From NCBI GenBank assembly GCA_900321005.1, contig ONUF01000021.1, positions 1 to 40,225 of the forward strand: a stretch of 40,225 nucleotides of DNA, in the 5' to 3' direction. Each line of letters starts with the position of its first letter. Within the stretch, counting starts at the first letter, position 1. Below the pieces are notes generated by a model. That model was not told where the DNA came from, ran no database searches, and saw only the letters and a list, made by a program, of their open reading frames with translations. This stretch comes from an uncultured Bacteroidales bacterium (GTDB lineage: Bacteria > Bacteroidota > Bacteroidia > Bacteroidales > Paludibacteraceae). Below are positions 10,426 to 37,313 of the stretch, one piece after another. The position numbers were made by a program, and so were the translations under genes.

Positions 10426-11319
10426 ATGACTATAGCCATATTTGGAAATGCAATGAAGTCCACGACCTTGCGCGAAGTGAGGCATATATTGGACTTTATG
10501 ACGGAGAAAGGCGTACATGTGCTTCTTTCTCAAGAGTTGCGGCAGGAGTTGGACCTGCGCGAGTACCCGGGATTCCCCGAGAACTGGGACGGAGACAAAC
10601 AGCCGGAGAACGTGTATGGCGAGCCCATCGACTTCGCGCTGTCGGTCGGCGGTGACGGTACATTCCTGACCACCGCCGCGGCGGTAGGAGACAAGAACAT
10701 ACCTATCCTCGGCGTGAACTGCGGACACCTGGGATTCCTCGCCGAAGTGCAGACGCAGGACCTGGATGATATCCTCCAAAAACTCGTAGCGGGCGAATAT
10801 ACGATCGAGCAGCGCGGTCTGCTTCATCTCACCGTGCTCGACAAAGACGGACTCCCCCGCGAGGGACTGATCCTGTCGCCTAACGCCCTCAACGAGATAG
10901 CGATCCTCAAGCAAGGTCTGACGAACATGTTGACCATCGAGACGAAGATCAACGGCGAGTTGCTGCACACCTACCATTCCGACGGTCTGGTCGTCGCCAC
11001 GCCGACGGGTAGTACCGCCTATAACCTCTCCATCGGCGGTCCGCTGCTTGTGCCGCAATCCCGCGGTATCATCCTCACGCCTATCGCGCCGCACAGCCTG
11101 ACGGTTCGTCCGATCATCATCCTCGACGAATGGAAGTTGGACTTCAAGATCAGCAGCCGCTACGACACGTACATGGTGTCGGTCGATGGCCGCAGTCAGA
11201 CGCTGAGTACCGACATGAGCCTGCATATCGAGCGCGCTCCGTACACCACGAAAGTGGTGCAGATAGGCGATAACAGCTTCTTGAAGTCATTGCAGAATAA
11301 GCTGAATTGGGGGAAGTAA
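10426..11319 (+). CDS. nadK: NAD kinase
   Basis: 297 residues. Phosphorylates NAD to NADP in the cytoplasm. The signature GGDG is at residues 75-78 (SVGGDGTFL), followed by GVNCGHLGFLAE and the substrate motif TPTGSTAYNLSIGGPL typical of bacterial PpnK. Length matches the family. ATG 10426 follows the promoter closely. The stop codon TAA at 11317-11319 is joined directly to a period-7 repeat that also supplies the start of lgt, so the two genes are probably cotranscribed. Confidence 0.95.
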   Translation: MTIAIFGNAMKSTTLREVRHILDFMTEKGVHVLLSQELRQELDLREYPGFPENWDGDKQPENVYGEPIDFALSVGGDGTFLTTAAAVGDKNIPILGVNCGHLGFLAEVQTQDLDDILQKLVAGEYTIEQRGLLHLTVLDKDGLPREGLILSPNALNEIAILKQGLTNMLTIETKINGELLHTYHSDGLVVATPTGSTAYNLSIGGPLLVPQSRGIILTPIAPHSLTVRPIIILDEWKLDFKISSRYDTYMVSVDGRSQTLSTDMSLHIERAPYTTKVVQIGDNSFLKSLQNKLNWGK

Positions 11320-11346
11320 TTGATGATTGATGATTGATAATTGATG
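11319..11346. repeat. Period-7 repeat (ATTG core) at the nadK/lgt junction
   Basis: Four heptads in exact register: ATTG-ATG, ATTG-ATG, ATTG-ATA, ATTG-ATG. The first begins in the last base of the nadK stop, and the last contains the ATG of lgt (11344). Confidence 0.85.
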
Positions 11347-12261
11347 ATTTTAGATTTTATTACGTGGAATGTTGATCCGGTGCTGATACACTTCGGTGAC
11401 GGGGGGATACGCTGGTACGGACTGTTATGGGCGATCGGGTTGTATGTCTGCTGGGCAATCAACGAACGGATGTACAAGCGCGAGCACTGTCCGGCAGAAT
11501 GGGCCGACCAGTTATTCTTCTGGATGGCAGCGGGCGTGATCATCGGTGCGCGAATCGGGCATTGTTGGTTCTATGAATGGCACGAATACGGCGAGCCCTG
11601 GCACCTCTTCGGATGGGAGTTCACCTACCGTAACCCGTATATCGAGCACCCCTTATGGCTCATCAAGATATGGGAAGGCGGGTTGAGCAGTCACGGCGGC
11701 GCGATAGGACTCATCATCGCGGCGATATTGCTCAATAAGTTCAAATACAGCCGCTATCCGCAGTTCGGCACGTCATGGCTCTGGATTCTCGACCGACTTT
11801 GCATAGGCGTATGTATCACGGGTGCGCTCATTCGATTGGGTAACCTGTTCAACAGCGAGATATACGGTGGTCCGACCGACCTGCCGTGGGGATTTATCTT
11901 TGTGCGCGACGGTCAGACGGTGCCCTGCCATCCGACGCAGCTCTATGAGATGCTGTACTGCCTGGTGGCTTTCGCCGTGACGCTGCCGCTGTACCTCAAC
12001 ACCGATGCGCGGCGACGCGAAGGACTGCTGCTCGGCGTGTTCCTCGAGATCGTGTTCGTGACGCGGTTCTGCCTGGAGTTTATCAAGAACGACCAAGAGG
12101 CATTCGAGGCAGACCACCTGCTGAACATGGGTCAGTGGCTCAGTCTGCCGTTTATATTGCTCGGTATCTTCTTGATAGTACGGGCATTTATCCGGCCGCT
12201 CTCGCCTGTAGTGGAGAAACAACCACAGAGTCTCGAACCTAAGTATCGAGACGTTAAATAA
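11344..12261 (+). CDS. lgt: Prolipoprotein diacylglyceryl transferase
   Basis: 305 residues from ATG 11344 (a TTG lies one codon upstream). Integral inner-membrane enzyme that transfers diacylglycerol from phosphatidylglycerol to the lipobox cysteine of prolipoproteins. The family signature GGLSSHGGA is at residues 112-120, preceded by GARIGHCWFYEW; several hydrophobic helices (WYGLLWAIGLY, FFWMAAGVIIG, FILLGIFLIV) span the chain. It serves the many lipoproteins in this window (for example 18460-19359, 21926-22486, 23646-24176). Its start codon lies inside the heptad repeat that follows nadK. Confidence 0.95.
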   Translation: MILDFITWNVDPVLIHFGDGGIRWYGLLWAIGLYVCWAINERMYKREHCPAEWADQLFFWMAAGVIIGARIGHCWFYEWHEYGEPWHLFGWEFTYRNPYIEHPLWLIKIWEGGLSSHGGAIGLIIAAILLNKFKYSRYPQFGTSWLWILDRLCIGVCITGALIRLGNLFNSEIYGGPTDLPWGFIFVRDGQTVPCHPTQLYEMLYCLVAFAVTLPLYLNTDARRREGLLLGVFLEIVFVTRFCLEFIKNDQEAFEADHLLNMGQWLSLPFILLGIFLIVRAFIRPLSPVVEKQPQSLEPKYRDVK

Positions 12262-12270
12262 AGTTTAATT

Positions 12271-12289
12271 GTTTTTATTCCATAAAAAC
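12271..12289. other. AT-only hairpin between lgt and fmt
   Basis: GTTTTTAT-TCC-ATAAAAAC lies in the 41-base gap. It is too weak for a normal terminator; no -7 box of the usual form is visible, so fmt is probably read through from nadK/lgt. Confidence 0.35.
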
Positions 12290-12302
12290 GTTTATAGGGT
12301 TT

Positions 12303-13244
12303 ATGACCAAGCAGGATCTTAGGATAGTTTATTTGGGCACGCCGGAGTTTGCGGTGGCGAGTTTGCAGGCGCTGGTAGAAGGCGGGTATAACGTCGTGGC
12401 GGTGGTCACGATGCCGGACAAACCTGCGGGGCGCGGGCATCTGGTGCAGTTTTCGGACGTGAAGAAATACGCGCTGTCGGTGGGTCTGCCGGTGCTGCAA
12501 CCCGAGAAGCTGAAAGACGAAGCGTTTATCGAAGCGTTGCGCAGTTACAAAGCGGACTTGCAGATCGTCGTAGCCTTCCGTATGTTGCCGGAAGTCGTAT
12601 GGGCGATGCCGCGCTTAGGCACGTTCAACCTTCATGCGTCCCTCTTACCCCAATACCGCGGCGCCGCGCCGATCAACTGGGCGGTGATGAACGGCGACAA
12701 AGAGACGGGTGCGACGACCTTCATGCTCAAGCATGAGATCGACACGGGCAACATGATCCTGCAGGAACGGATTCCTATCGGACCCGACGAGAATGTGGGT
12801 TCGGTGCACGACCGACTGATGGCGATGGGTACGAGTTTGGTGACCCGTACGGTCGATCTGATCATCGACTGCGAGAACAAAGGCATCGAAGTGCCGACGA
12901 CGCCTCAACCCGAGATCGCCGAACTGCGACCGGCGCCGAAGATCTTCAAAGAAGATTGCGAGATTAAGTTTGCGGAGAAGACCGCCGAAGAGGTACATAA
13001 CTTCGTTCGCGGACTAAGTCCCTACCCCGCGGCATGGGCGAAGCTAAGTATCAACGGCATCACTTTTGACAATGTCAAAATATATGCCGTTGAAGTTATC
13101 AGCAATCAGCAATCAGTTATCAGCTCAGGGAAGGGAGATATTGTTATTCCGTGCAAAGAAGGGGCGGTGCGGATTCTCGAACTGCAAGTGCCCGGAAAGA
13201 AACGAATGGACGTTCGTTCATTCCTGAACGGAATTCACAATTGA
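12303..13244 (+). CDS. fmt: Methionyl-tRNA formyltransferase
   Basis: 313 residues. Formylates initiator Met-tRNA. The N-terminal formyltransferase domain begins IVYLGTPEFAVASL; the signature HASLLPQYRGAAPINWAV is near residues 110-127, and the C-terminal tRNA-binding domain has NFVRGLSPYPAAW. Residues about 265-274 (ISNQQSVISS) are encoded by a period-7 repeat inserted in frame within the C-terminal domain, between AVEV and GKGDIVIPC. The surrounding sequence is normal, so the enzyme is probably functional. The stop TGA lies inside a second heptad repeat leading into the next gene. Confidence 0.95.
   Translation: MTKQDLRIVYLGTPEFAVASLQALVEGGYNVVAVVTMPDKPAGRGHLVQFSDVKKYALSVGLPVLQPEKLKDEAFIEALRSYKADLQIVVAFRMLPEVVWAMPRLGTFNLHASLLPQYRGAAPINWAVMNGDKETGATTFMLKHEIDTGNMILQERIPIGPDENVGSVHDRLMAMGTSLVTRTVDLIIDCENKGIEVPTTPQPEIAELRPAPKIFKEDCEIKFAEKTAEEVHNFVRGLSPYPAAWAKLSINGITFDNVKIYAVEVISNQQSVISSGKGDIVIPCKEGAVRILELQVPGKKRMDVRSFLNGIHN
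13096..13128. repeat. Period-7 repeat (TCAG core) inside fmt
   Basis: Heptads TTA-TCAG, CAA-TCAG, CAA-TCAG, TTA-TCAG, then CTCAG. Read in frame as ISNQQSVISS. Confidence 0.85.
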
Positions 13245-13260
13245 TGATTGATGATTGATT
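13240..13260. repeat. Period-7 repeat (ATTG core) at the fmt/HD-gene junction
   Basis: ATTG-ATG, ATTG-ATG, ATTG-ATT. The first heptad contains the fmt stop TGA (13242-13244) and the second the ATG (13251) of the next gene. Confidence 0.85.
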
Positions 13261-13808
13261 ATTTAGGACTCATTGATAAGTATTATGCGGAGGTGCCGGA
13301 ATTACGGCATATCCTCGTGACGCACAGCCGTCAGGTGGCGGACCGCGCGCTGAAGATCATCGACGCCCATCCGGAATGGGAGGCGCAGGGACTCGTCGAT
13401 CGGGCTTTTGTCGAAGAAGCGGCGATGTTGCACGACATAGGAATTATCTTCTGCAACGCTCCGAAGATCCACTGCAACGGTCCGCACAAATATATCGAAC
13501 ACGGGTTCCTCGGCGCGGAGTTGCTGCGCCAAGAAGGGTATCCGAAACATGCCTTGGTAGCCGAACGCCACACGGGCGCAGGTATCACGATTGAACAGGT
13601 AGAACGCGAAGAATTGCCGATACCCGAACGGGACTACTGCCCGCAGAGTCTCGAAGAGAAAATCATCTGCTACGCCGATAAATTCTACTCAAAGTCGCAC
13701 CTCGGCGAAGAAGTGAGTCTCGACAAAATCAAATACAACATCTGGAAATACGGCCACGAAGGCTATGTGCGCTGGCAACAACTCGTAGAGTTGTGCGGCG
13801 AGTTTTAA
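13251..13808 (+). CDS. HD-domain phosphohydrolase
   Basis: 185 residues from ATG 13251 (TTG 13248 is also possible). HD-superfamily pattern: H25 in THSRQVADRAL, the HD pair at residues 61-62 (MLHDIGIIF), a later GPHKYIEHG and ERHTGAG, and YADKFYSK as the distal aspartate region. These residues bind a metal pair in HD hydrolases acting on nucleotides or phosphate esters; the substrate cannot be told. Start codon supplied by a heptad repeat shared with the fmt stop. Its stop overlaps, by three bases, the stop of the convergent DUF3078 gene. Confidence 0.85.
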   Translation: MIDYLGLIDKYYAEVPELRHILVTHSRQVADRALKIIDAHPEWEAQGLVDRAFVEEAAMLHDIGIIFCNAPKIHCNGPHKYIEHGFLGAELLRQEGYPKHALVAERHTGAGITIEQVEREELPIPERDYCPQSLEEKIICYADKFYSKSHLGEEVSLDKIKYNIWKYGHEGYVRWQQLVELCGEF

Positions 13809-14968
13809 TGGAACTTATGCGCGAAACCGATGGATAGCAGTTCACGGAACTGTATCTTGGCGTGCGTGTCTCCGTCCAAGATGACGGAGGTGTCATAGCG
13901 AGGATGGAGCGTCAGTCGGGCCGAGAGCCAACGGTTGATGATGAAGTCGCAGTTCACCTCAAGGTCCAACTCCACGTAGTGATAGTTGGTGTACATAAAG
14001 AAGCGCGTCTCCATCGCGAACTCACGGACAGGTTTCCAGGTATATTCCAAACGAACCGACGAACCGATATTATGCAAGGTCTGCGTGCCGGCTATCAGAC
14101 CGTAGTCCGTCACGGCCACGCGCGCGGTATCCATAATATGTATCATCTTATAAGACAGCGGCGAGAAAGACACACTCAGTCCCGGCACGGGTTTGTAGTC
14201 CAAACCGAGCGCAGCATTGAAACGGAGCGGCGAGAAAGGTCCGCTCTTCATCTTCTTCGAGTTCGCCTTATAGGTCGGCAACAGGCGTGTCTCGAACTCC
14301 GCAGACACTGATCCGAAGAGTTTGGGCACGATGCGGTAGTTGGCTTTGGAATAGAGGCGTAGCAGGTCATCCGTGGTGTTGACCTTATGCAGCGTGTCCG
14401 CGGAGATTGTCGATCCGCCTGCGCGCCACTCGCCGGTGTTCTCCCAAGTGAAGCGCTCCGTGATATAACTGATATAGCCTTTGAGGATCGCGAGTCCGGC
14501 GAAGGATGACGAACCGCCTTGGTACCAGTTGGGCGTGACATAGTTCTGGGTGATCTGCACCATGACCGTCGCCTCGCGCCGCCACGGGGTCTTCATATCG
14601 CGTATCGAGCGCAGCACGTCGTTGCGGTCCTCCTCCTCATCCTTGATCCAGGATTTCTCGACTTGGATGGCAGGGATCTGCTCGACGGTCTTGATGACCA
14701 GTTCGGCATTCATCGCGCGCAGGGAGTCGATCTCGCGTATCTCCCGCTCGATAGAGTCGAGCGCCATGCGTTCGGCGATGGTCAGCGTGTCGATGGTGTC
14801 GTTCGCGTGCAGCTGCGCACTCTGCTCCGCAACCATGTCGAGCAACAGCAAGTCCATGTCCGCCGTCATCTTCTGGTCGTTAAGACGGAAGGTGTCGGTA
14901 TATAGTTGTTGCGCTGCCAGATTAGTGACAGCGCAAAGCAACAACCCTATGAGAATTTTAGTTTTCAG
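13805..14968 (-). CDS. DUF3078 outer-membrane-type protein; canonical start codon missing
   Basis: About 387 residues if read from CTG 14966-14968. The signal peptide KTKILIGLLLCAVTNLAAQ is intact only when the frame is extended to this CTG; the nearest standard start (TTG 14942-14944) would cut it in half, and a TGA lies at 14972-14974. The body is the Bacteroidetes DUF3078 family (ITQNYVTPNWYQGGSSSFAG, then beta-rich segments such as LFGSVSAEFETRLLPTYKA), probably an outer-membrane beta-barrel; function unknown. It follows secA on the same strand after a heptad repeat that seems to have overwritten the ATG. Confidence 0.8.
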   Translation of the reverse strand: MKTKILIGLLLCAVTNLAAQQLYTDTFRLNDQKMTADMDLLLLDMVAEQSAQLHANDTIDTLTIAERMALDSIEREIREIDSLRAMNAELVIKTVEQIPAIQVEKSWIKDEEEDRNDVLRSIRDMKTPWRREATVMVQITQNYVTPNWYQGGSSSFAGLAILKGYISYITERFTWENTGEWRAGGSTISADTLHKVNTTDDLLRLYSKANYRIVPKLFGSVSAEFETRLLPTYKANSKKMKSGPFSPLRFNAALGLDYKPVPGLSVSFSPLSYKMIHIMDTARVAVTDYGLIAGTQTLHNIGSSVRLEYTWKPVREFAMETRFFMYTNYHYVELDLEVNCDFIINRWLSARLTLHPRYDTSVILDGDTHAKIQFRELLSIGFAHKFH

Positions 14969-14978
14969 TAATCAGTAA

Positions 14979-14982
<4 letters not shown>
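14962..14982. repeat. Period-7 repeat (TCAG core) at the secA/DUF3078 junction
   Basis: Plus-strand heptads TTT-TCAG, TAA-TCAG, TAA-TCAG; on the coding strand CTGA-TTA, CTGA-TTA, CTGA-AAA. The first coding-strand CTGA contains the secA stop TGA and the last contains the presumed CTG start of the DUF3078 gene. Confidence 0.85.
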
Positions 14983-18317
<3,335 letters not shown>

Positions 18318-18325
18318 ATACTAAG

Positions 18326-18353
18326 TGGTCAGAATTCAGTATTCAGTTTTCAG
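18326..18353. repeat. Period-7 repeat (TCAG core) in the secA leader
   Basis: Heptads TGG-TCAG, AAT-TCAG, TAT-TCAG, TTT-TCAG, ending 9 bases before the secA start. On the transcript: CTGA-AAA, CTGA-ATA, CTGA-ATT, CTGA-CCA. The first two nearly match those at 37293-37306. Confidence 0.85.
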
Positions 18354-25029: not shown

Positions 25030-25583
25030 GAAAACGCACGACACAGGAGATGGGACGCTTAAGCGTTGCCGACTACCGCGCAGCCGACAAACTGCCGCTG
25101 GTGGTAGTACTCGACAATGTGCGTAGCCAGCATAACGTAGGGGCCGTATTCCGCACCGCCGACGCCATGCGTATCGAGCGGGTCGATTTATGCGGTATCT
25201 GTTGTTGTCCACCGAATCAGGAGTTGCACAAGACCGCGCTCGGCGCAGAAGAGACGGTGGAGTGGCGCTATTTCAAAGACACCTTGGAAGCAGTGCGTGC
25301 ACTGCAAGCGGAAGGCTATACCGTCTATGCCGTCGAACAGGCACACGACGCTTCGACACTGGAGGAAGTAGCCGAACAAATCATCAATCATCAATCATCA
25401 ATCATCAATTGTCCCAAAATCGCTGTGGTTCTCGGGCACGAGGTTTTCGGAGTGCAGCAAGAAGTGGTGGACGCCTGTGACGGATGTATCGAGATACCGC
25501 AATACGGAACGAAACACTCGATGAACGTAAGTGTGACGGCCGGTATTGTGCTATACAGACTTTCAGAAGCCCTGCGATCATGA
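25026..25583 (+). CDS. TrmH/SpoU-family RNA methyltransferase
   Basis: 185 residues. SPOUT fold with the three SpoU motifs: DNVRSQHNVGAVFRTADA, AVVLGHEVFGV, and IEIPQYGTKHSMNVSVTAGI. It transfers a methyl group from S-adenosylmethionine to a ribose 2'-OH of tRNA or rRNA; the exact substrate cannot be told. Residues about 119-128 (IINHQSSIIN) are encoded by a period-7 repeat inserted just before the second motif, in the linker between EEVAEQ and CPKIAVVLG. Joined to both neighbours by ATGA overlaps. Confidence 0.9.
   Translation: MRKRTTQEMGRLSVADYRAADKLPLVVVLDNVRSQHNVGAVFRTADAMRIERVDLCGICCCPPNQELHKTALGAEETVEWRYFKDTLEAVRALQAEGYTVYAVEQAHDASTLEEVAEQIINHQSSIINCPKIAVVLGHEVFGVQQEVVDACDGCIEIPQYGTKHSMNVSVTAGIVLYRLSEALRS
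25379..25409. repeat. Period-7 repeat inside the TrmH-like gene
   Basis: AATCATC four times in perfect register (25379-25406), then AAT; the reverse complement is the ATTG-ATG heptad of 11319-11346. Read in frame as IINHQSSIIN. Confidence 0.88.
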
Positions 25584-27004
25584 CCTTATTATCTCCCGCA
25601 AAAAATAAAGAAGTCGCTGTCGCGGCTATTCAAGCCGGCGCGGATGCCATCTACATCGGTGCCCCGGTTTTCGGTGCGCGCGAGAAAGCAGGAAACAGCA
25701 TCGAGGACTTGGCGGAAGTGGTGGATTATGCCCATACTTACGGAGTCCAGGTACTCGTGACCGTCAACACACTGCTGCATGAGGACGAGTATCCGCAAGC
25801 CGTACGGATGATAGAGGATTTACACCGCATCAGCGTGGATGCGCTGATTATTCAGGACTTGCATCTCTTGGATTTTGACCTCCCGCCTATTCGCCTGCAT
25901 GCCTCTACGCAATGTGACAACCGCACGCCGGAGCAGGTAGCCAAACTGAGGGACATGGGATTCAAGCGCGTGGTGTTAGCCCGCGAACTGAGTATCGACG
26001 AGATTCGGGCTATTCACGAAGCTGTGCCGGATATCGAGTTGGAAGCCTTCGTGCACGGCGCGCTGTGCGTGAGTTATTCGGGGCGCTGCTATATATCCGA
26101 AGTACTGGCTGGGCGCAGCGCCAACAGAGGTGCCTGTGCGCAGTTCTGCCGCATGGCGTATGACTTACTCGACGCCGAAGGAAATGAGGTGTTGGACGAA
26201 CAAGGCGAACCGATTCATCAGCGGCATTTATTGTCCTTGCAGGACTTGGACAGAAGTGCCTATTTGGCGGAACTGATTGAGGCCGGTGTGACGACCTTTA
26301 AGATCGAAGGACGACTCAAAGATGCGGAGTATGTAACGAATGTCACGGCGTATTACAGGGAGAAATTGGATGCCCTCACGCACGCTTTCCCTCATACACT
26401 CACTCGATCCTTCACGCCCGATCCCGAGAAGACTTTCCATCGCGGGGCGACAGATTATTTTCTGCACGGTCGTACGCGGCCTATGGCCAATTGGGACACA
26501 CCGAAGTCCACGGGCGAGTATGTCGGTCAAGTACTGGAAGTGCGCGGAAACACCATCCGCGTGCGCTTAGAACCGGGCATCGTGCTGCACAACGGCGACG
26601 GGCTGACAATCGGCAGCGAAGGATGTAATGTAAATGGTGTGGACGGAAGTCTGGTGAAGGTGAATAAAGTGATCAGTGGTCAGCCATCAGTAGTCAGTCC
26701 GCTATACCGAAATCTCGATGTGGAATTTATCAAGTCCCTGCATAGCGAGCGACGTATTCCGGTGGATATCGAGTTTAAGGAGACAGAAGATGGCTTTGCT
26801 TTACGGATCGGTGATAAAGAGCGGTCCTTCAGTTATCCGAAAGAACCCGCCCGCGATGCTCAGAAAGCGCTCGCGACGATCCGCACGCAGATCTCCAAAT
26901 TAGGGGATACACCTTATATAGCGCGTGACGTGCGCGTGGAGAGCCAACCGTATTTTATACCGATAAGTGTGTTAAATGAATGGAGACGCAATACGATCAT
27001 CTGA
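25580..27004 (+). CDS. Peptidase U32-family protein, C-terminally shortened
   Basis: 474 residues from ATG 25580 (ATGA overlap with the previous stop). U32 collagenase-like barrel: LLSPAKNKEVAVAAIQAGADAIYIG, RLHASTQCDNRT, then the family signature ELEAFVHGALCVSYSGRCYIS and NRGACAQFCRMAYDL with conserved cysteines. Bacterial relatives act in rRNA or tRNA hydroxylation or as proteases. Residues about 363-373 (VISGQPSVVSP) come from a period-7 repeat in the C-terminal half. The chain ends at FIPISVLNEWRRNTII, and the cysteine-rich end usually found on longer Bacteroidetes members is in a separate overlapping ORF. Confidence 0.88.
   Translation: MTLLSPAKNKEVAVAAIQAGADAIYIGAPVFGAREKAGNSIEDLAEVVDYAHTYGVQVLVTVNTLLHEDEYPQAVRMIEDLHRISVDALIIQDLHLLDFDLPPIRLHASTQCDNRTPEQVAKLRDMGFKRVVLARELSIDEIRAIHEAVPDIELEAFVHGALCVSYSGRCYISEVLAGRSANRGACAQFCRMAYDLLDAEGNEVLDEQGEPIHQRHLLSLQDLDRSAYLAELIEAGVTTFKIEGRLKDAEYVTNVTAYYREKLDALTHAFPHTLTRSFTPDPEKTFHRGATDYFLHGRTRPMANWDTPKSTGEYVGQVLEVRGNTIRVRLEPGIVLHNGDGLTIGSEGCNVNGVDGSLVKVNKVISGQPSVVSPLYRNLDVEFIKSLHSERRIPVDIEFKETEDGFALRIGDKERSFSYPKEPARDAQKALATIRTQISKLGDTPYIARDVRVESQPYFIPISVLNEWRRNTII
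26670..26697. repeat. Period-7 repeat (TCAG core) inside the U32 gene
   Basis: Heptads TGA-TCAG, TGG-TCAG, CCA-TCAG, TAG-TCAG. Core fixed, three variable bases all different. Read in frame as ISGQPSVVS. Confidence 0.85.
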
Positions 27005-30500: not shown

Positions 30501-30510
30501 GGGGGGGGGG
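30501..30510 (+). repeat. Run of ten G directly after the stop codon
   Basis: G10 immediately follows the TGA of the LRR gene. Homopolymers of this length are prone to slippage, but here a length change cannot alter the protein. Confidence 0.9.
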
Positions 30511-30548
30511 CAATCAGATTGACTTGAAATAGAAGAAAAATGAATATT

Positions 30549-30591
30549 AATGACATTTCCGAAGACAATAATTTGGAAATGTCATTTTTTT
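30549..30591 (+). terminator. Strong intrinsic terminator fused to the next promoter
   Basis: AATGACATTTCC (30549-30560) pairs perfectly with GGAAATGTCATT (30575-30586), followed by a T-run to 30591. The right arm lies in the -33 element of the next promoter. Confidence 0.88.
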
Positions 30592-30603
30592 GCTGTATAT
30601 TTG
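30572..30603 (+). promoter_or_regulatory. Promoter of the small gene at 30645
   Basis: TTTGGAAATGTC (30572-30583) and TATATTTG (30596-30603). Confidence 0.7.
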
Positions 30604-30644
30604 CAGTCGATTTTGAAAAGTAACCATTTAACGCACGAAGAACT

Positions 30645-31004: not shown

Positions 31005-31041
31005 AGGAATAGTTTTTCGGAAGTATATTGGAATGACGTTG

Positions 31042-31078
31042 GGGTGATCTTGGGCTGAGCAGCCTTTGATCACCCTTT
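31042..31078 (+). terminator. Nested hairpin after the small gene
   Basis: GGGTGATC (31042-31049) with GATCACCC (31068-31075), enclosing GGCTG-AG-CAGCC (31053-31064). Followed only by TTT, so a weak or Rho-assisted terminator. The right arm runs into tandem 11-mers. Confidence 0.6.
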
Positions 31079-31101
31079 CAGCACCCATTGAGCACCCTTT
31101 G
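31069..31101. repeat. Three tandem 11-mers
   Basis: ATCACCCTTTC, AGCACCCATTG and AGCACCCTTTG stand head to tail. They overlap the hairpin at 31042-31075. Confidence 0.6.
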
Positions 31102-31132
31102 GGATAAGGCGGAAACCTGCTGGAAAGGAGGA

Positions 31133-31251
31133 CGCGGATAGCATCCGCGACAACAAACGACGTAAACCGGCGTGCAATGCCGGAGAATGGACATACAAGA
31201 CCCGCATACAATGCGGAGAAATAGACATACAAAGCCCGCATACAATGCGGG
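31133..31251 (+). repeat. Array of four mini-hairpins with constant loops
   Basis: CGCGG-ATAGCAT-CCGCG (31133-31149), CCGGC-GTGCAAT-GCCGG (31167-31183), CCCGC-ATACAAT-GCGGA (31201-31217), CCCGC-ATACAAT-GCGGG (31235-31251), separated by 17-base spacers (the second and third contain AGACATACAA or GGACATACAA). Homologous units occur at 620-670, 960-976 and inside the RepA-like gene. The array lies in the 560-base gene-free stretch before dapB. Confidence 0.8.
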
Positions 31252-31364
31252 GAGAGCGGACGGAGATAGGCCGCCTCACAGACGGGACGACGACGCCAAT
31301 GCTACACCCGCATTGAGCCCGAAGCGGGCGGGGCGACGCGAAGCGGCGGACGCGAGGGCGAATC

Positions 31365-31385
31365 GTCCTCGCGCGGAGCGAGGAC
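31365..31385. repeat. 8-bp-stem hairpin in the same gene-free stretch
   Basis: GTCCTCGC-GCGGA-GCGAGGAC. GC-rich, no T-run, bordered by GGCG/CGCC. Probably part of the same repeat cluster, which extends from about 31133 to 31410. Confidence 0.6.
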
Positions 31386-31465
31386 AACGAAGGCCTAAAC
31401 CGCCTATGGCCGAGTTCCAAAGAAATGTGGAAAAATTGACGGAATTGGGTGATTTTAGAGAAAAG

Positions 31466-31498
31466 AATGGCATATGCTTGCATATGTCATTTATTTTT
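31466..31498 (+). terminator. Terminator-like hairpin fused to the dapB promoter
   Basis: AATGGCATATG (31466-31476), loop CTTG, CATATGTCATT (31481-31491; one G-T pair), then TATTTTTT. No gene ends just upstream, so it would stop readthrough from the repeat region. Confidence 0.72.
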
Positions 31499-31508
31499 TG
31501 TAATTTTG
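31478..31508 (+). promoter_or_regulatory. dapB: Promoter of dapB
   Basis: TTGCATATGTC (31478-31488) and TAATTTTG (31501-31508), 56 bases before the dapB ATG. Confidence 0.8.
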
Positions 31509-31564
31509 CGGCCGATTTTGCGCGCTCGCACAAAAGCGCGTACGCATATACACAGGAAAAGAAA

Positions 31565-32281
31565 ATGAAAAACGAAGTTAATCGTGCCCCTGTGGCTAAG
31601 AAGATAGCACTGATTGGATATGGGAAGATGGGGCATATGATTGAGCAGATTGCCCTGGAGCGAGGTCACGAAATAGTCGGGATTATAGACCCGACATTGG
31701 TGATTGGTGATTGCTCATTGCTAATTGATTTTAATAGTGAGGCTTTCCGGAGCGCGGATGTGGCGATTGAGTTCACGACACCGGCGACAGCCAAGGAGAA
31801 TATTTTACGCGCGTGGGCGCAGGGCGTACCGGTGATCTCCGGTTCCACTGGGTGGAGACCGGAAGAATTGGAAATTGGAGATTGGAAATTGGAGATTGAA
31901 AGTAGCCGCGTTGTCGTAAAGGACGAAGCGGGGAAGGTGATGCTTGTGTGGAGCAGTAATTTCTCTGTAGGCGTGAATATCTTCTTTGAGATGAACAAGT
32001 GGTTGGCGGAGAAGATGGAAAAGCAGCCGCAGTATACGCCTTCTATCACCGAGACGCATCATATTCACAAGTTGGACAAGCCGAGCGGAACGGCGAAGAC
32101 CTTGGCGGAAGCAATCGGCAGGGACGTGATGATAGAATCGATTCGCGAGGGAGAAGTACCGGGAACGCATGAAGTGATGTGGGACAGCGAAGAAGATACG
32201 ATCGTTATTACGCATATCGCCAAAGGTCGCAGAGGATTCGCGCTTGGCGCAGTACTGGCTGCGGAGCAGTTAAACCGTTAA
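31565..32281 (+). CDS. dapB: 4-hydroxy-tetrahydrodipicolinate reductase
   Basis: 238 residues from ATG 31565; the same frame is open far upstream through repeat DNA, but the promoter at 31478-31508 rules out an earlier start. Lysine and diaminopimelate pathway reductase. Nucleotide-binding IALIGYGKMG near residue 15; catalytic/substrate motif ETHHIHKLDKPSGTA near 160. Two period-7 repeats are inserted in frame: residues about 44-56 (LVIGDCSLLID) after the second strand, and about 100-113 (ELEIGDWKLEIES) in the following loop. Both lie outside recognisable active-site motifs. The last residues QLNR and the stop come from a third repeat. Confidence 0.94.
   Translation: MKNEVNRAPVAKKIALIGYGKMGHMIEQIALERGHEIVGIIDPTLVIGDCSLLIDFNSEAFRSADVAIEFTTPATAKENILRAWAQGVPVISGSTGWRPEELEIGDWKLEIESSRVVVKDEAGKVMLVWSSNFSVGVNIFFEMNKWLAEKMEKQPQYTPSITETHHIHKLDKPSGTAKTLAEAIGRDVMIESIREGEVPGTHEVMWDSEEDTIVITHIAKGRRGFALGAVLAAEQLNR
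31696..31730. repeat. Period-7 repeat (ATTG core) inside dapB, first
   Basis: Five heptads: ATTG-GTG, ATTG-GTG, ATTG-CTC, ATTG-CTA, ATTG-ATT. Only the three non-core bases vary. Confidence 0.88.
31867..31901. repeat. Period-7 repeat (ATTG core) inside dapB, second
   Basis: Five heptads: ATTG-GAA, ATTG-GAG, ATTG-GAA, ATTG-GAG, ATTG-AAA. Same total length (35 bases) as the first. Confidence 0.88.
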
Positions 32282-32308
32282 ACTGTTAAATCGTTAAATT
32301 GTTAAAAT
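32269..32308. repeat. Period-8 repeat (GTTAAA core) at the dapB/lepB junction
   Basis: Five octamers: GTTAAA followed by CC, CT, TC, TT and AT. It includes the dapB stop TAA (32279-32281) and the first bases of the lepB ATG (32307). Confidence 0.88.
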
Positions 32309-33638
32309 GAAATCATTCAAGGATAGAATTAATGAAGTGACGCGCGGAGGATGGATTCGCGCAGGAATTTGGGGCACGCTGTATGTCGTGTTCGTCTTTT
32401 GGGTTGCATGGGGCGACTGGAAGAGTTTGGGTTGGCTGGTGTTGCTCCCGCTGATTGTGGATGCGTTTACGACGAAGTATATCAACTATAGCTGGTGGCG
32501 CAAGTACAAAGATACCAAACCGGCGTTGTACACGCTCTGTAGTTGGATTGACGCGATTGTCTTTGCGCTGGTAGCCGTATATTTCATCAATCTGTATATT
32601 TTCCAGAACTACCAGATACCCTCTTCGAGTTTGGAGAAGACCTTGCGTGTGGGCGATTTTCTGTACGTGAGCAAGATGGCCTACGGTGCGCGTGTGCCGC
32701 AGACACCGCTGTCGATGCCGCTGATGCAACATACGTTCCCTGCTTGGCTCGGTGGCGGCAAGAGTTATTTGGACAAACCGCACTGGGACTACAAGCGTCT
32801 GGCAGGTTGGACCAGTCCGCAGAAAGGCGATATCGTGGTCTTTAACTTCCCTGCAGGCGACACGGTTTGCACGAAGATGCAGAACCCTGACTATTACACG
32901 CTGCGTCATTACTACGGCGAGGCGCTCATCAAGAACCGCAAAGATGTGTTCGGCGAGATCATCGTTCGGCCCGTGGATAGAAGAGAGAACTACGTGAAGC
33001 GCTGTGTCGGCACACCGGGAGACAGTCTGCGTATCATTGACAATGTAATTTATGTGAACGGCGAACGCGAACCGGAACGCGAAGGATTACAGTTGAACTA
33101 TTTCGTGCAGACAGACGGACATTTGTTCAGCGCGAAGTACTTGGAGAAACTCGGTATCAGTCTCGCCGACCGCGTGCAGGTAGATGCCACCACCTGGCAC
33201 TTCCCTTTGACGCAGGCCATGAAGACAGAGATCGAGAAGAATCCGCATGTGCTGGCGATCGCTATCGAGCCCGAGGAACAAGGTGGCGCCGTGTATCCGC
33301 TTGGTCATAACGAGTGGACACGCGACAACTACGGACCGATTTATATTCCGAAAAAAGGCGATCGGATTTTGATTACCGAAGAGAACTACTGGATTTATAA
33401 GCGCATCGCCGATGCGTATGAGTTCAAGCCGATCGCGATAGGCGAGGAGTATGAGTTTGAGATGGATTATTACTGGATGATGGGTGACAACCGCCATAAC
33501 AGTGCCGACAGTCGTTTCTGGGGTTTTGTGCCCGAAGACCACGTGGTCGGACGACCGGTATTCGTTTGGTTGTCGCTGGACAAAGACAACCACAAGATTC
33601 GTTGGAACCGTTTGGGACGTAAAGCGACAGGAAGATGA
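32307..33638 (+). CDS. lepB: Signal peptidase I
   Basis: 443 residues, long as usual in Bacteroidetes. Removes signal peptides at the periplasmic face. Two N-terminal hydrophobic segments (WGTLYVVFVFWVAW, LGWLVLLPLIVDAF) and a third before the catalytic region; catalytic serine in QIPSSSLEKTL, lysine in RRENYVKRCVGTPGDSL, and the late box MMGDNRHNSADSRFWG. An insert between these boxes (about residues 250-360) is typical of the phylum. The start codon is formed by the period-8 repeat; the stop overlaps the next ATG (ATGA). Confidence 0.95.
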   Translation: MKSFKDRINEVTRGGWIRAGIWGTLYVVFVFWVAWGDWKSLGWLVLLPLIVDAFTTKYINYSWWRKYKDTKPALYTLCSWIDAIVFALVAVYFINLYIFQNYQIPSSSLEKTLRVGDFLYVSKMAYGARVPQTPLSMPLMQHTFPAWLGGGKSYLDKPHWDYKRLAGWTSPQKGDIVVFNFPAGDTVCTKMQNPDYYTLRHYYGEALIKNRKDVFGEIIVRPVDRRENYVKRCVGTPGDSLRIIDNVIYVNGEREPEREGLQLNYFVQTDGHLFSAKYLEKLGISLADRVQVDATTWHFPLTQAMKTEIEKNPHVLAIAIEPEEQGGAVYPLGHNEWTRDNYGPIYIPKKGDRILITEENYWIYKRIADAYEFKPIAIGEEYEFEMDYYWMMGDNRHNSADSRFWGFVPEDHVVGRPVFVWLSLDKDNHKIRWNRLGRKATGR

Positions 33639-34150
33639 TTTTACCTACCGCCTATTTGCCACCGCTGTCGTACATGCAGGCGCTGATGAGCGAGCCGGCC
33701 ATGATAGAAGCAATGGAGACATTCGAGAAGCAGACTTTTAGAAATCGGTGTCTGATTCGCGATGCGAAAGGAGAGTTGGTGAGACTGACCGTTCCGGTGG
33801 GCAAAGTGGAACATAAACAACTAACACGCGACATACAGATCAGTTACCAGACGCGGTGGCAACACCAACACTGGATCACACTGGTCAGCGCGTACCAACA
33901 CACACCGTACTTCATGTACTTCGCCGACTACTTGCGGCCGTTCTACGAAAAAGAGTACAAGTGGTTGTTGGACTTGAATGACGAGATGAACGCCACGCTG
34001 GTGAGCCTGCTGCGCAGGGAAAAGCCGACTTCAGTTATCAGCGGTCAGTTATCAGCTCGCACGGAGGACTGGAGCGGACAAATCTGGACAGATAAACATC
34101 CGTGGCAAACGGAATTGAGTATATTAGATACATTATTTGATGAATATTGA
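33635..34150 (+). CDS. WbqC-like family protein
   Basis: 171 residues. WbqC-like pattern: TAYLPPLSYMQAL at the N-terminus, RNRCLIRDAKGELVRLTVPV, and WQHQHWITLVSAYQHTPYFMYFADYLRPFYE. Members are often near polysaccharide or amino-sugar genes and are thought to be transferase-like, but no reaction is established. Residues about 132-141 (SVISGQLSAR) come from a period-7 repeat inserted between LLRREKPT and TEDWSGQIW. Overlaps lepB by 4 bases and ilvE by 11. Confidence 0.85.
   Translation: MILPTAYLPPLSYMQALMSEPAMIEAMETFEKQTFRNRCLIRDAKGELVRLTVPVGKVEHKQLTRDIQISYQTRWQHQHWITLVSAYQHTPYFMYFADYLRPFYEKEYKWLLDLNDEMNATLVSLLRREKPTSVISGQLSARTEDWSGQIWTDKHPWQTELSILDTLFDEY
34029..34056. repeat. Period-7 repeat (TCAG core) inside the WbqC-like gene
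   Basis: Heptads ACT-TCAG, TTA-TCAG, CGG-TCAG, TTA-TCAG. In frame as SVISGQLS. Confidence 0.85.
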
Positions 34151-35144
34151 TTGGAGTAGTTTGGGATTTCATTATACCGAACCCGAGTATATCGTTCGGG
34201 CGGGGTATCATGACGGCAAGTGGGAGGAACCCTATGCCACGAAAGATAAGTACCTGCACTTACATGTGTCGGCTACTTGTCTGCAATACGGACAAGAGGC
34301 GTTTGAGGGGTTAAAAGCGTTCCGCGGCATCGACGGTAAGATTCGTATCTTCCGCTGGAGAGAGAATGCGAAACGCATGGCGAAGAGTGCCGAAGGACTA
34401 TTCATGGCACCAGTTCCGGAGGAGTTGTTTGGCAAGGCGATTCACATGGCGTTAGAGAAGAACCTCGACCTCGTTCCGCCTTACGGCACAGGAGCTACGC
34501 TGTATTTCCGGCCCTTGCTGATTGGCACGACGCCGCGTTTGGGGGTAGGTCCGGGAAAGGACTTTGAGTTCATCGTCATTCCTTCGCCTATCGGACCGTA
34601 CTACCCGGGAAAATTCCATTGCACGACCTTTATCGTCAATCGCTATGTGGACCGTGCGGCGCCTTACGGAACAGGTCAATTCAAGGTGGGAGGCAACTAC
34701 GCATCCTCATTCAGGGCTACCGAAGCGGCACATATGATGGGTTGCGACTGCCTGTTCCTCGATGCCAAGCAACATAAGTTCATCGACGAGTGTTCGGCTG
34801 CGAACTTCATTGGCATAAAGGGCAACGAATATTTAACACCGAAAAGCAGCGCCATTCTGCCGAGTATCACGAATGACAGTCTGATGACGCTGGCTCGCGA
34901 GATAGGACTGAAAGTGACGCGCAGAAAGATACGCTTGGAGGAGTTGGCCGATATGAGTGAAGCCGCAGCGTGCGGCACGGCGTGCGTCATTTCGCCGATC
35001 AACAAAGTGGTGGACACGGAGAAAGGCGTTACCTACTCTTTCGGCGACGAACCCGGTCCGGTATTAACCAAACTCTACCACGCACTGAAGGATATTCAGT
35101 ACGGAAGAGCGGAGGACAAGTACGGATGGTGTGAAATAATTTAA
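34140..35144 (+). CDS. ilvE: Branched-chain amino acid aminotransferase
   Basis: 334 residues from ATG 34140 (a TTG one codon earlier). PLP-dependent fold type IV enzyme, final step of Val/Leu/Ile synthesis. Motifs: LQYGQEAFEGLKAFRG, FRWRENAKRM, LYFRPLLIGT, and the PLP lysine region FKVGGNYASSFRA followed by FIDECSAANF. The length fits bacterial BCAT group members of the long type. Overlaps the WbqC-like gene by 11 bases. The 15-base gap to the symporter gene has no promoter. Confidence 0.94.
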   Translation: MNIDWSSLGFHYTEPEYIVRAGYHDGKWEEPYATKDKYLHLHVSATCLQYGQEAFEGLKAFRGIDGKIRIFRWRENAKRMAKSAEGLFMAPVPEELFGKAIHMALEKNLDLVPPYGTGATLYFRPLLIGTTPRLGVGPGKDFEFIVIPSPIGPYYPGKFHCTTFIVNRYVDRAAPYGTGQFKVGGNYASSFRATEAAHMMGCDCLFLDAKQHKFIDECSAANFIGIKGNEYLTPKSSAILPSITNDSLMTLAREIGLKVTRRKIRLEELADMSEAAACGTACVISPINKVVDTEKGVTYSFGDEPGPVLTKLYHALKDIQYGRAEDKYGWCEII

Positions 35145-35159
35145 AAAACCAAAATAATT

Positions 35160-36701
35160 ATGTTTAAGAATCAACCAAAAGGATTATTTGCGCTCGCGCT
35201 GGCGAACACCGGCGAGCGTTTCGGCTACTACACGATGTTAGCCGTCTTTGCGCTGTTCTTGCGCGCGAACTTCGGTCTGTCTGCAGGTGCGGCAGGTGCT
35301 ATCTATTCGACGTTTTTGGCGTTTGTGTATTTTCTGCCGTTGATCGGAGGTATCATCGCCGACAAGATCGGTTACGGTAAGTGCGTGACGATCGGTATTA
35401 TTATCATGTTCCTCGGCTACGTACTGCTGGCTATTCCTATGGGTGGCATTGAATACGGTAGTACGGCTGTGGCCATGACGGGAATGATCGGTGCGCTGGT
35501 ACTGATCTCCTTCGGTACAGGTTTGTTCAAAGGCAACCTGCAGGTGATGGTAGGTAACTTGTATGACGATCCCGCTTATGCCGAGCGTCGTGACGCAGCC
35601 TTCTCGCTGTTCTACATGGCGATTAATGTAGGTGCGATGTTCGCTCCGACAGCCGCTGTGAAGATCATGGCTTGGGCTCATGAGTCGCTGGGTGTAAGCG
35701 TGAATGACAGTTACCATTTTGCGTTCGCTGTAGCTTGTGCTTCGTTGGTACTGAGTATCGCGATTTACTACGCTTGCCGTCCATGGTTCAAACATGTGGA
35801 GAACACGGCCAAGCAAGCTGCTGCAAGCGGTCAGAAAGTAGAAGAGTTGAGTCCCGAGCAGACGAAAAAACGCATTGTAGCGTTGTGTTTGGTATTTGCT
35901 GTGGTTATCTTCTTCTGGATGGCTTTCCACCAGAATGGTTTGACATTGACCTATTTCGCCGATAAGTTTGTGAATCCTATCATAACCGGTACGCAAACCA
36001 TGGCCTTTAATATCTGGAACCTTGTGCTGGTAGCTATCGGCGTGTATGGTTTGTTCGGTATCTTCGGCGAAGGTTCTGCTAAATCAAAATCTATATGGGG
36101 AGTTGTCACCGCAGCTGTTATCGGCATTTTGGCTATCCAATATGCACATCACCCGGCAGAGATGCACATCTCCGCTCCTATTTTCCAACAGTTCAACCCG
36201 TTCTATGTGGTGGCTTTGACTCCGGTGAGCATGGCTATCTTCGGTGCGCTGGCAAAACGCGGTAAAGAGCCGAGCGCTCCGCGTAAGATTGCGTATGGTA
36301 TGTTGGTCGCAGCCGCAGCATATGCGGTAATGGCTTTCTGCTCGGTAGGTCTGTTGACGCCGAACGCACAAGAGGCTGCTTTGGAGGCAGGCGAGAGCCC
36401 GCTGATGGTCAACGCGAATGTGCTGATTGGAACATACCTGGTTCTCACCTTTGGTGAGTTATTGCTCTCGCCGATGGGAATCTCGTTCGTCAGCAAAGTA
36501 GCTCCCCCGCAGTACAAAGGTATGATGATGGGTGGCTGGTTCGTTGCTACCGCACTCGGTAACTTCCTTGTATCTGTCGGTGGTTTCCTCTGGGGCAACC
36601 TGCCGTTGTGGCTCGTATGGAGTGTATTCATCGGAGTATGCCTCATTGCCGCTATCTTTATGTTCGCGATGATGGGTAAATTAGAAGACGCAACGAAATA
36701 A
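35160..36701 (+). CDS. Proton-dependent oligopeptide symporter (POT family)
   Basis: 513 residues, about twelve to fourteen hydrophobic helices. The ANTGERFGYYTM stretch is the ExxERF-YY proton-coupling motif of helix 1 of POT/PTR transporters; the second signature FGTGLFKGNLQVMVGNLYDD and the FSLFYMAINVGAMFAP helix are also present. Imports di- and tripeptides with protons across the inner membrane. Preceded by ilvE with a 15-base gap; a 28-base gap follows. Confidence 0.92.
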   Translation: MFKNQPKGLFALALANTGERFGYYTMLAVFALFLRANFGLSAGAAGAIYSTFLAFVYFLPLIGGIIADKIGYGKCVTIGIIIMFLGYVLLAIPMGGIEYGSTAVAMTGMIGALVLISFGTGLFKGNLQVMVGNLYDDPAYAERRDAAFSLFYMAINVGAMFAPTAAVKIMAWAHESLGVSVNDSYHFAFAVACASLVLSIAIYYACRPWFKHVENTAKQAAASGQKVEELSPEQTKKRIVALCLVFAVVIFFWMAFHQNGLTLTYFADKFVNPIITGTQTMAFNIWNLVLVAIGVYGLFGIFGEGSAKSKSIWGVVTAAVIGILAIQYAHHPAEMHISAPIFQQFNPFYVVALTPVSMAIFGALAKRGKEPSAPRKIAYGMLVAAAAYAVMAFCSVGLLTPNAQEAALEAGESPLMVNANVLIGTYLVLTFGELLLSPMGISFVSKVAPPQYKGMMMGGWFVATALGNFLVSVGGFLWGNLPLWLVWSVFIGVCLIAAIFMFAMMGKLEDATK

Positions 36702-36729
36702 TCGTTCGCACGAAGTAAGATAAGAAGTA

Positions 36730-37296
36730 ATGGAAGAAGTAATTAAATATTTTGAATCGCTCGAGGAGCGGATCGCTACCTTGGAAGCCGAAATGGCTTC
36801 GTTAGAGGCCGAATTGGACGAACTCAAGAGTCGTCCTGCGCCCGAGCCGCAGGTGATCGAAAAAGAGGTGGTCAAAGAAGTGGTAGTAGAAAAACCGGTG
36901 GAGGTGATCAAGGAAGTAGTTGTGGAGAAGCCGATAGTTGAGCCGGAGATTCCGGAAATACCGGCTGAACCGGAGCCTGCGCCAGAGCCGGAGCCCGTAA
37001 AGGAGGAGTCGCAGCCTGAGCCCGAACCCGTCAAAGAAGAAGTTGTTTCGCCAAAGGCGGCAGTGTACGGAAAAGCCGTAAGCGATATTCGTCAAGCGAT
37101 CTCGTTGGGCGACCGCTTCCTATACCAACGCGAGTTGTTCGGTCAGAACGCCGAACTGATGCAGCAAACGCTTACCAGACTCAATGAGTTGGGTTCGTTC
37201 GACGAGGCTGTCGCGTACATCAACCGCTTCGGATGGGATACCGAGAGTAGTACCTATCAGCAGTTTATCGTTACCCTTCACCGCCGTTTTGGCTGA
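36730..37296 (+). CDS. Coiled-coil, Pro/Glu-rich protein with conserved C-terminal domain
   Basis: 188 residues. Residues 1-35 are a short coiled coil (YFESLEERIATLEAEMASLEAEL); about 36-110 are a low-complexity Pro/Glu/Val linker (VVEKPVEVIKEVVVEK, EPEPAPEPEPVK); the C-terminal 75 residues (DIRQAISLGDRFLYQRELFG, LNELGSFDEAVAYI, FGWDTES) form a helical domain common in Bacteroidetes. No signal peptide. Function unknown. The TGA stop is inside the period-7 repeat that also starts rsmI. Confidence 0.78.
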   Translation: MEEVIKYFESLEERIATLEAEMASLEAELDELKSRPAPEPQVIEKEVVKEVVVEKPVEVIKEVVVEKPIVEPEIPEIPAEPEPAPEPEPVKEESQPEPEPVKEEVVSPKAAVYGKAVSDIRQAISLGDRFLYQRELFGQNAELMQQTLTRLNELGSFDEAVAYINRFGWDTESSTYQQFIVTLHRRFG

Positions 37297-37313
37297 AAAC
37301 CGAATACTGAATG
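37293..37313. repeat. Period-7 repeat at the junction before rsmI
   Basis: CTGA-AAA, CCGA-ATA, CTGA-ATG. The first heptad holds the stop of the upstream gene (37294-37296), the last ends with the rsmI ATG (37311-37313). Closely matches the coding-strand heptads of the secA leader. Confidence 0.8.

What the first reader, a model, noticed from the sequence alone, without database searches (positions are those of the whole stretch)
11319..37313. A family of exact period-7 repeats: a fixed 4-base core plus three variable bases, at 11 loci
Eleven loci consist of three to five heptads in strict register. In one group (13096, 14962, 18326, 26670, 34029, 37293) the core is TCAG or its complement CTGA; in the other (11319, 13240, 25379, 31696, 31867) it is ATTG or its complement. 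The core is almost invariant while the three remaining bases differ even between adjacent units (for example TGA, TGG, CCA, TAG before TCAG). Simple slippage would copy all seven bases, so something preserves the core only. Cyanobacterial STRR heptamers are a known parallel, but core-plus-variable heptads in both genes and operon junctions are not something I know described. Possible explanations: tandem sites for a protein or RNA-binding factor, or a generating mechanism with degenerate templating.
Basis: partly seen in the sequence, partly recalled or inferred. Interest (0 to 1): 0.88.

Follow-up and report, generated by a model that had tools for sequence, protein, structure and literature searches.

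The report
Seven-base repeat arrays with species dialects
A group of gut bacteria carries many short seven-base repeats whose four-base core stays nearly fixed while the other three bases vary, and related species often carry differently spelled repeats, or none, at the same places, which suggests a fast process that keeps rewriting these spots rather than fixed control signals.

Summary
In detail: 10 of the 11 window loci hold at least three exact cores at period 7, against a mean of 0.01 in 200 Markov simulations; 37293 has one imperfect core. In a 408-kb sample of this genome, period 7 dominates (76 loci with a 4-mer four times, 0 in one Markov copy). Core columns mostly differ far less between adjacent units than variable columns. 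The two groups share the register AYTGNNN.

The decisive finding is comparative. At the window's sites, 106 comparisons with same-genus species give 71 without a period-7 array, 32 with a different core and 3 with the same core. Like heptads recur within a genome more than between genomes, and among arrays 1-3 kb apart. Several families end at a fixed phase. Inside genes, CTGA arrays are all antisense, hence free of their TGA stops. Short arrays alternate (ABA 54 of 110), which plain 7-nt slippage does not predict.

Best reading: fast-turnover minisatellites written in 7/14-nt steps by short-homology re-priming and tolerated at gene junctions and protein loops. The mechanism is inferred. Close precedents exist (TAACTGA, Xanthomonas GGGANTN, Nostoc trnL heptads): a new variant of a known kind.

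The parts
11319..11349 (+). (ATTGATG)(ATTGATG)(ATTGATA)(ATTGATG)ATT at the NAD kinase / lgt junction; by alignment its last ATG is probably the start of lgt
   Evidence: 15 same-genus species at this site: 4 other core, 11 without a period-7 array
13094..13123 (-). (CTGANNR)4 CT inside fmt (methionyl-tRNA formyltransferase), antisense to the gene, ORF open
   Evidence: 16 species: 8 other core, 8 none; 38 named loci with >=80% identical fmt (partly the same genomes): 13 with a period-7 array of 6 families
13240..13263 (+). ATTGATG ATTGATG ATTGATT ATT at the junction of fmt and an HD-domain gene
   Evidence: 15 species: 3 other, 12 none
14960..14982 (-). (CTGANNN)3 CT at the secA stop codon, sense orientation
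   Evidence: 13 species: 3 other, 10 none
18324..18353 (-). (CTGANNN)4 CT just upstream of the secA start, sense orientation
   Evidence: 9 species: 2 other, 7 none
25379..25409 (-). (ATTGATG)4 ATT inside a SpoU-type rRNA methylase gene, antisense
   Evidence: 14 species: 9 other, 5 none
26668..26697 (-). (CTGANNN)4 CT inside a U32-peptidase gene, antisense
   Evidence: 16 species: 2 same core, 2 other, 12 none
31696..31730 (+). five ATTGNNN units inside the dapB ORF, sense, ORF open
   Evidence: 2 species: 1 other, 1 none
31867..31901 (+). alternating ATTGGAA/ATTGGAG units (then ATTGAAA) inside the dapB ORF, sense, ORF open
   Evidence: nearly identical array at the same place in one other species, G048
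34028..34055 (-). (CTGANNN)4 inside a WbqC-like gene, antisense; no CT tail
   Evidence: 2 species: none
37293..37313 (+). CTGAAAA CCGAATA CTGAATG at the end of one ORF and the start of a tetrapyrrole-methylase-family gene; two relatives have 15 bases less here

Best explanation
The arrays are fast-turnover minisatellites, not fixed signals. A DNA-synthesis event at a permissive place (gene junction or protein loop) adds roughly 15-35 bases in steps of 7 or 14: the growing end re-primes on a match of about 3-4 bases (in this genome RYT followed by G), so the core is required and the bases between are not. Arrays, or short stretches of them, already in the genome act as favoured templates for new ones, mostly within a few kilobases, so each species develops a dialect. 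Selection only filters the result: no in-frame stop codons and kept frame inside genes, freer elsewhere. Recombination between species exchanges the alleles. SHOWN: core/variable structure, period 7, dialects, local similarity, phase-locked ends in several families, replacement at orthologous sites, stop-free orientation of CTGA arrays in genes. INFERRED: re-priming / template switching, and the absence of a required function.
For: Core mismatch rates mostly .00-.07 (fourth base of ATTG .18) against .22-.40 in the variable columns (sixth column of ATTG .07). Ends phase-locked in this genome: of 35 CTGA arrays 32 match C and 32 match T one unit after the last core and 2 match G, with little signal one unit upstream; similar two-base tails in GGTT, AGTT, CTTT and AATG. 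Like heptads within a genome .134 against .067 between genomes, beyond 500 label permutations; arrays 1-3 kb apart are alike .317 against .165 permuted (1 of 300) here and .199 against .105 (0 of 300) in five other genomes, with no excess beyond 10 kb. At orthologous sites: 71 none, 32 other core, 3 same of 106. Unit indels (7 and 8 nt) and whole-array replacement among four species pairs at 93-96% aligned identity. Inside genes CTGA arrays are 18 antisense, 0 sense. A clean empty site at 37293: 15 bases added after GGCT. ABA order in 54 of 110 short arrays (p = 0.0008), not produced by the detector.
Against: No excess of shared unit order between arrays in the sample, so copying of whole arrays is not seen; but only about 19% of the genome was sampled. 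Net lengths of the fmt loop (21, 24, 27, 30, 33, 36 or 72 nt against 9) are not all 9 plus a multiple of 7, so extra indels or another event are needed. The phase lock is not general: AATT and ATTT families show none, and ATTG taken over all loci is less sharp. Local similarity is not significant below 1 kb (37 and 33 of 300) and weak at 3-10 kb (31 and 8 of 300), and could equally come from imported DNA (one search shows mosaic genomes). Three same-genus genomes showed no array in 15-35 kb each (G012, G054, G055). In this genome alone ABA is 10 of 24. No enzyme is identified. CTGA arrays recur in 117 of 296 Bacteroidota genomes, against 66 for the reversed pattern (the 66 counted by me from the table), so some cores are favoured beyond drift of dialects.
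Confidence: 0.42

Rival explanations
1. Plain local slippage: any chance 7-base duplication expands by polymerase slippage, mutation decays the units, and a composition bias makes the cores look alike.
For: Heptads are reported as over-represented among bacterial simple repeats and were attributed to polymerase slippage (PMC4679880 and PMC4692102, passages, both citing an earlier survey). Unit-sized indels occur. Units inside one array are more alike than units of different arrays. The de novo detector gave lag1 > lag2 > lag3 in 57 arrays of six or more units, though it selects for adjacent identity. At 13240 a relative without an array has a near-unit sequence.
Against: The variable columns are the same ones in all arrays of a family taken together, whereas mutation would hit all seven. 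Cores are shared across loci in a genome-specific way. Four-unit arrays show adjacent units less alike than next-nearest ones (Hamming 1.343 against 1.041). Steps of 7 inside core genes pass through frameshifts.
Confidence: 0.22
2. The arrays are selected binding or leader elements: unstructured A/T-rich stretches between stop and start codons that act in translation or bind a protein such as S1 or a cold-shock protein, as MacGregor proposed for TAACTGA.
For: Of 16 CTGA arrays at gene junctions in the sample 13 lie in the sense orientation, and 6 of the 16 have an ATG within 6 bases after the last full unit (my counts). The heptads are A/T-rich.22-.36 GC. TAACTGA repeats sit upstream of start codons in Maribeggiatoa (PMC4679880).
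Against: 19 of 35 CTGA arrays in that list lie inside genes. Orthologous sites in same-genus species mostly lack a period-7 array or use another core. Several cores per genome. Only a weak trend to low structure (.41-.45 of letter permutations are less structured.5 expected).
Confidence: 0.18
3. A dedicated template-copying enzyme (reverse transcriptase with an A-B-A' RNA template, telomerase- or DRT10-like) writes the arrays.
For: DRT10 makes short tandem-repeat DNA from an A-B-A' template, with A of only 2 nt in two systems (PMC12632851, passages); the arrays here have the form A-B-A with A = RYT. The own genome has one RVT_1 match, 32.6 bits.
Against: RVT_1 is not found in G051, the densest of the seven larger samples (97% complete), nor in G003, G006, G017, G048; 11 of 41 genomes have one. 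The model could miss divergent enzymes. A fixed template would not give variable B segments and several cores per genome. Ku has no match in 41 of 41, so Ku-type end joining is not needed either.
Confidence: 0.07
4. Imported DNA: each array was acquired with a recombined segment from another species, so dialects reflect donors and no local generator works in this lineage.
For: Close species are mosaics with locally divergent blocks; local similarity up to a few kb.
Against: Only moves the origin to another species; CTGA heptads occur across 56 of 140 genera sampled in the phylum; at the fmt site no array among 13 is within one base of the window's unit.
Confidence: 0.1

Closest known systems
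TAACTGA direct repeats (MacGregor 2015, PMC4679880)
   Same: Tandem heptamers, two to six copies in the type genome, at operon junctions before start codons and, in reverse orientation, inside ORFs; the heptamer also repeats in Cyanobacteria and five Bacteroidetes including Paludibacter. TAACTGA is one spelling of CTGANNN.
   Different: There one exact heptamer dominates and single-base variants are rarely repeated; here three positions vary, several cores coexist, and orthologous sites mostly differ in core between species.
GGGAATC / GGGANTN heptads of Xanthomonas (Rehm 2015, PMC4692102)
   Same: Core-plus-variable heptads, 186 and 183 loci per genome, four units commonest.
   Different: G-quadruplex core, 89-93% intergenic; one motif in both species.
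Cyanobacterial heptamers; Nostoc trnL P6b classes TDNGATT and NNTGAGT (PMC4476775)
   Same: Degenerate heptads and a documented shift of heptad class at one site.
   Different: One intron stem-loop under structural pairing; here many loci.
Constant-size, variable-sequence tandem repeats of Bacillus, 52 and 20-21 nt (PMC8161180)
   Same: Several species-specific families of one fixed unit length in a genome, with short characteristic words.
   Different: Other unit lengths, Firmicutes.
DRT10 / telomerase repeat addition (PMC12632851)
   Same: A-B-A' logic of repeat addition.
   Different: cDNA, not chromosomal arrays; fixed template; no RVT_1 found in five array-rich genomes here.

Membership tests
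Heptamer simple-sequence repeats (LSSR / STRR class) | Tandem units of exactly 7 nt above chance | tested here: met
   period 7, four copies: 76 loci against 0 in one order-2 Markov copy; 86 arrays against 1 in one order-3 Markov copy
TAACTGA repeats (MacGregor) | One exact heptamer repeated, related heptamers rarely so | tested here: not met
   29 CTGA arrays hold 25 distinct inner units, CTGATTA commonest; several cores per genome
[quoted passage not shown]
   16 of 35 CTGA arrays at junctions, 13 of these sense; 19 inside genes, all antisense (greedy ORF calls, my count)
Xanthomonas GGGANTN heptads | G-tract core able to form a quadruplex | tested here: not met
   none of the 50 commonest 4-base cores printed contains GGG
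Simple slippage microsatellite | Adjacent units most alike, mutations spread over all positions | tested here: not met
   against this, (detector that selects for adjacent identity) gave lag1 > lag2 > lag3, and one search finds no alternation in 20 long arrays
Telomerase/DRT10-like writing | Reverse transcriptase present in array-bearing genomes | tested here: not met
   no RVT_1 in G051, G003, G006, G017, G048 (75-98% complete drafts; divergent enzymes could be missed); the own genome has one weak match
Binding-site array | A protein that binds the core and a phenotype on removal | not testable with these tools
   needs experiment

The most novel reading that the evidence does not exclude
A dedicated and still unknown DNA-writing process in Bacteroidota builds short arrays of a fixed 7-nt (or paired 14-nt) unit at unrelated sites, with a programmable core that is set per genome and changes between sister species while the intervening bases stay free: a generator of species-specific repeat dialects.
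Probability: 0.13. Interest if true: 0.85.

Novelty: new variant of a known kind. Interest (0 to 1): 0.6.

Why it matters
Why heptads dominate bacterial simple repeats has, in the papers seen, only a guess (length of DNA in contact with the polymerase). A genus in which array density runs from none seen to several hundred per Mb, with many orthologous sites, visible replacement between close species, and separable core and variable positions, makes the question testable. The arrays also lie inside core genes (fmt, dapB) and beside others (secA), so they are a source of protein-loop and gene-spacing change.

Tried and rejected
Considered and rejected: chance; coding constraint alone (codon shuffles); assembly artefact as sole cause (arrays keep frame and recur in drafts from separate projects); reverse-transcriptase writer; Ku end joining (0 of 41). 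DinB-type polymerase is found in 33 of 41 genomes and not in G022, dense in a 10-kb sample, so no clear link. Low secondary structure as the selected trait: weak. Intact copying of arrays between loci: no excess of shared unit order. A first lag analysis on de novo arrays pointed the other way; I trust the latter because their detector ignores the variable bases and was checked on simulated arrays, but both are reported. One search shows no alternation in the 20 arrays with six or more inner units, and 10 ABA of 24 in the own genome alone.

Dropped rows: three CTGA runs that are also ATTGCTG arrays stay in the 35; one search excluded runs dominated by that spelling. G021 was left out (7 arrays). 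In one search one array (L179) has TCAG cores like the window's, although its consensus unit differs by more than one base. One search covers 20 + 20 fetched stretches, counts only period-7 arrays scoring 8 or more (8-base repeats count as none), and sites 31696-37293 had only 2 alignable species each.
Full report
WHAT IS THERE. The window is contig C39 of a 2.12-Mb draft genome (78% complete). Its closest named relatives are metagenome-assembled Paludibacteraceae / uncultured Bacteroidales, many with titles that name ruminant gut samples. All 11 loci were read; ten have at least three exact cores at period 7 and one (37293) has an imperfect middle core. Against order-3 Markov sequence the window's 10 runs compare with a mean of 0.01. 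In 408 kb of this genome 76 loci have a 4-mer four times at period 7, with none in one order-2 Markov copy; periods 4-6 and 8-21 give 0-6. A second period scorer finds 86 period-7 arrays against 1 in one order-3 Markov copy, with smaller excesses at 8 (20 against 3), 9 (19 against 1) and 11 (19 against 0). Codon-preserving shuffles of 318 ORFs keep 2.8 of 50 matches on average.

ANATOMY. Adjacent-unit mismatch by column is .01 .01 .03 .18 | .24 .07 .28 for ATTG and 0 .02 .07 .04 | .25 .40 .22 for CTGA. The variable bases are not random: after ATTG mostly A/G/C, then T/A, then G/A; after CTGA rarely G first, and A/G last. In this genome the ends are phase-locked: of 35 CTGA arrays, 32 match C and 32 match T one unit after the last core but only 2 match G, while upstream there is little phase signal beyond a purine at -1 in 28 of 35. 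ATTG arrays end ATTT in 15 of 31. Across 573 array contexts, families such as GGTT, AGTT, CTTT and AATG show the same sharp start and two-base tail, but AATT and ATTT do not, and ATTG over all loci is less sharp. Four units is the commonest size for the two families here (22 of 35 and 16 of 31, minimum three); by length, four and five are equal (184 each of 521) over all loci.

UNIT ORDER. Among 110 distinct arrays with three inner triplets of two kinds, 54 are ABA, 30 ABB and 26 AAB (p = 0.0008 against one third; in this genome alone 10, 8 and 6). Mean Hamming distance is 1.343 for neighbours and 1.041 for next-nearest units in 194 four-unit arrays (0 of 300 permutations reach either); simulated random-order arrays give nearly equal thirds through the same detector. 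In the 123 five- and six-unit arrays only the lag-2 excess is clear (1 of 300; lag 1 39 of 300), and the 20 longer ones show nothing. Seven-base slippage predicts the opposite; a 14-base step would fit. A detector that scores adjacent identity gave the slippage-like order, which I attribute to its selection.

PLACE AND ORIENTATION. By greedy ORF calls (no gene finder), 19 of 35 CTGA arrays lie inside genes, all antisense; 16 lie at junctions, 13 in the sense direction, 6 of the 16 with an ATG within 6 bases after the last full unit (counted by me). At least 30 nt inside ORFs of 120 aa or more, CTGA arrays are 18 antisense and 0 sense; ATTG arrays are 11 and 5. Sense arrays such as 31867 keep their ORF open. 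This looks like a filter against stop codons and frameshift.

DIALECTS. In samples of 174-408 kb from six same-genus genomes the commonest heptads differ: ATTGNNN and CTGANNN here; AATTAAR and ATGGNAA in G051; ATTTATG and GGTTACG in G006; ATTGGTG in G003. Pairs of arrays in one genome are alike in .134 of cases and pairs from different genomes in .067; 500 label permutations never give such a difference, though the effect is small in G017 (.066 against .053). Arrays 1-3 kb apart are alike about twice as often as permuted; below 1 kb the excess is not significant, at 3-10 kb it is weak, and beyond 10 kb there is none.

TURNOVER AT ORTHOLOGOUS SITES. At the window's 11 sites, 106 comparisons with same-genus species give 71 without a period-7 array, 32 with another core and 3 with the same core. 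At the fmt loop, 38 named loci with fmt 80% identical or more show 13 period-7 arrays of six families, none within one base of the window's unit (one, L179, does carry TCAG cores), 8 short loops without insert, and 17 others with 8-base repeats or non-repeat inserts. Among four pairs with 93-96% identity over aligned bases, arrays are replaced, gained, or differ by single 7- or 8-base units. One retained case: the alternating array at 31867 is nearly identical in G048. The clearest empty site is 37293: two relatives read GGCT|AATGC where this genome has 15 more bases. Array density is 206 per Mb in named loci of close relatives, 156 in the next group and 23 in the most distant Bacteroidales loci fetched; among same-genus genomes it runs from 0 (G012, G054, G055, 15-35 kb each) to 786 per Mb (G022, 10 kb). 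In the phylum, (CTGANNN)4 occurs in 117 of 296 genomes and 56 of 140 genera; the reversed pattern occurs in 66 genomes by my count of the table.

MECHANISM. Position-specific freedom, phase, dialects and replacement are shown. I infer iterative re-priming on a 3-4-base match in steps of 7 or 14, with nearby arrays as favoured templates, and selection as a filter only. Against this: no shared unit order between sampled arrays and net lengths that are not all multiples of 7. Import of DNA from other species would also explain local dialects, given the mosaic genomes. A reverse transcriptase seems not to be needed: RVT_1 is not found in array-rich G051, G003, G006, G017 or G048, although the own genome has one weak match; Ku has no match in 41 of 41.

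WHAT IS KNOWN. TAACTGA repeats (PMC4679880; abstract, passages, sections 8, 10, 15, 24 read), Xanthomonas (GGGANTN)n with four units commonest (PMC4692102; passages and section 10), Nostoc trnL classes TDNGATT and NNTGAGT that shift at one site (PMC4476775; passages), constant-size variable-sequence repeats of Bacillus (PMC8161180; passages), DRT10 (PMC12632851; passages). PMC4853749 (passages) reports TAACTGA in Thiomargarita. I found no paper on heptads that differ between species at orthologous sites genome-wide, or on unit alternation, in the listings of searches; the library holds open-licence papers only. Hence: new variant of a known kind.

Noticed in passing
window 31056-31101 and 31164-31250: An 11-nt tandem repeat (4.2 copies) and a 34-nt repeat (2.6 copies) just before and at the start of the dapB ORF; the DapB_N domain begins only at residue 144 of that ORF, so the true start is probably internal.
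   Followed up: no
window 32269-32306: An 8/16-nt repeat (GTTAAACC) at the end of dapB and before the next gene; 8-base arrays also occur at orthologous sites elsewhere.
   Followed up: partly
fmt loop in L164, L169, L172, L189, L194: The same insertion site holds a C-rich stretch, in several cases followed by its near-complement (as in CCCTCCCTGAAGGGAAGGGAG of L189), instead of a heptad array: another kind of insert uses the same place.
   Followed up: no
L183/L189, L182/L185, L191/L194, L177/L180: Close species look like mosaics: long near-identical stretches broken by short highly divergent blocks in genes, suggesting recombination between species.
   Followed up: no
G235 (phylum search): One Bacteroidota genome has 627 matches of (CTGANNN)4 and none of the reversed control.
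   Followed up: no
U32-peptidase gene in G051 and G052: The orthologue shows one in-frame TGA and one TAG within the aligned stretch in these two genomes.
   Followed up: no
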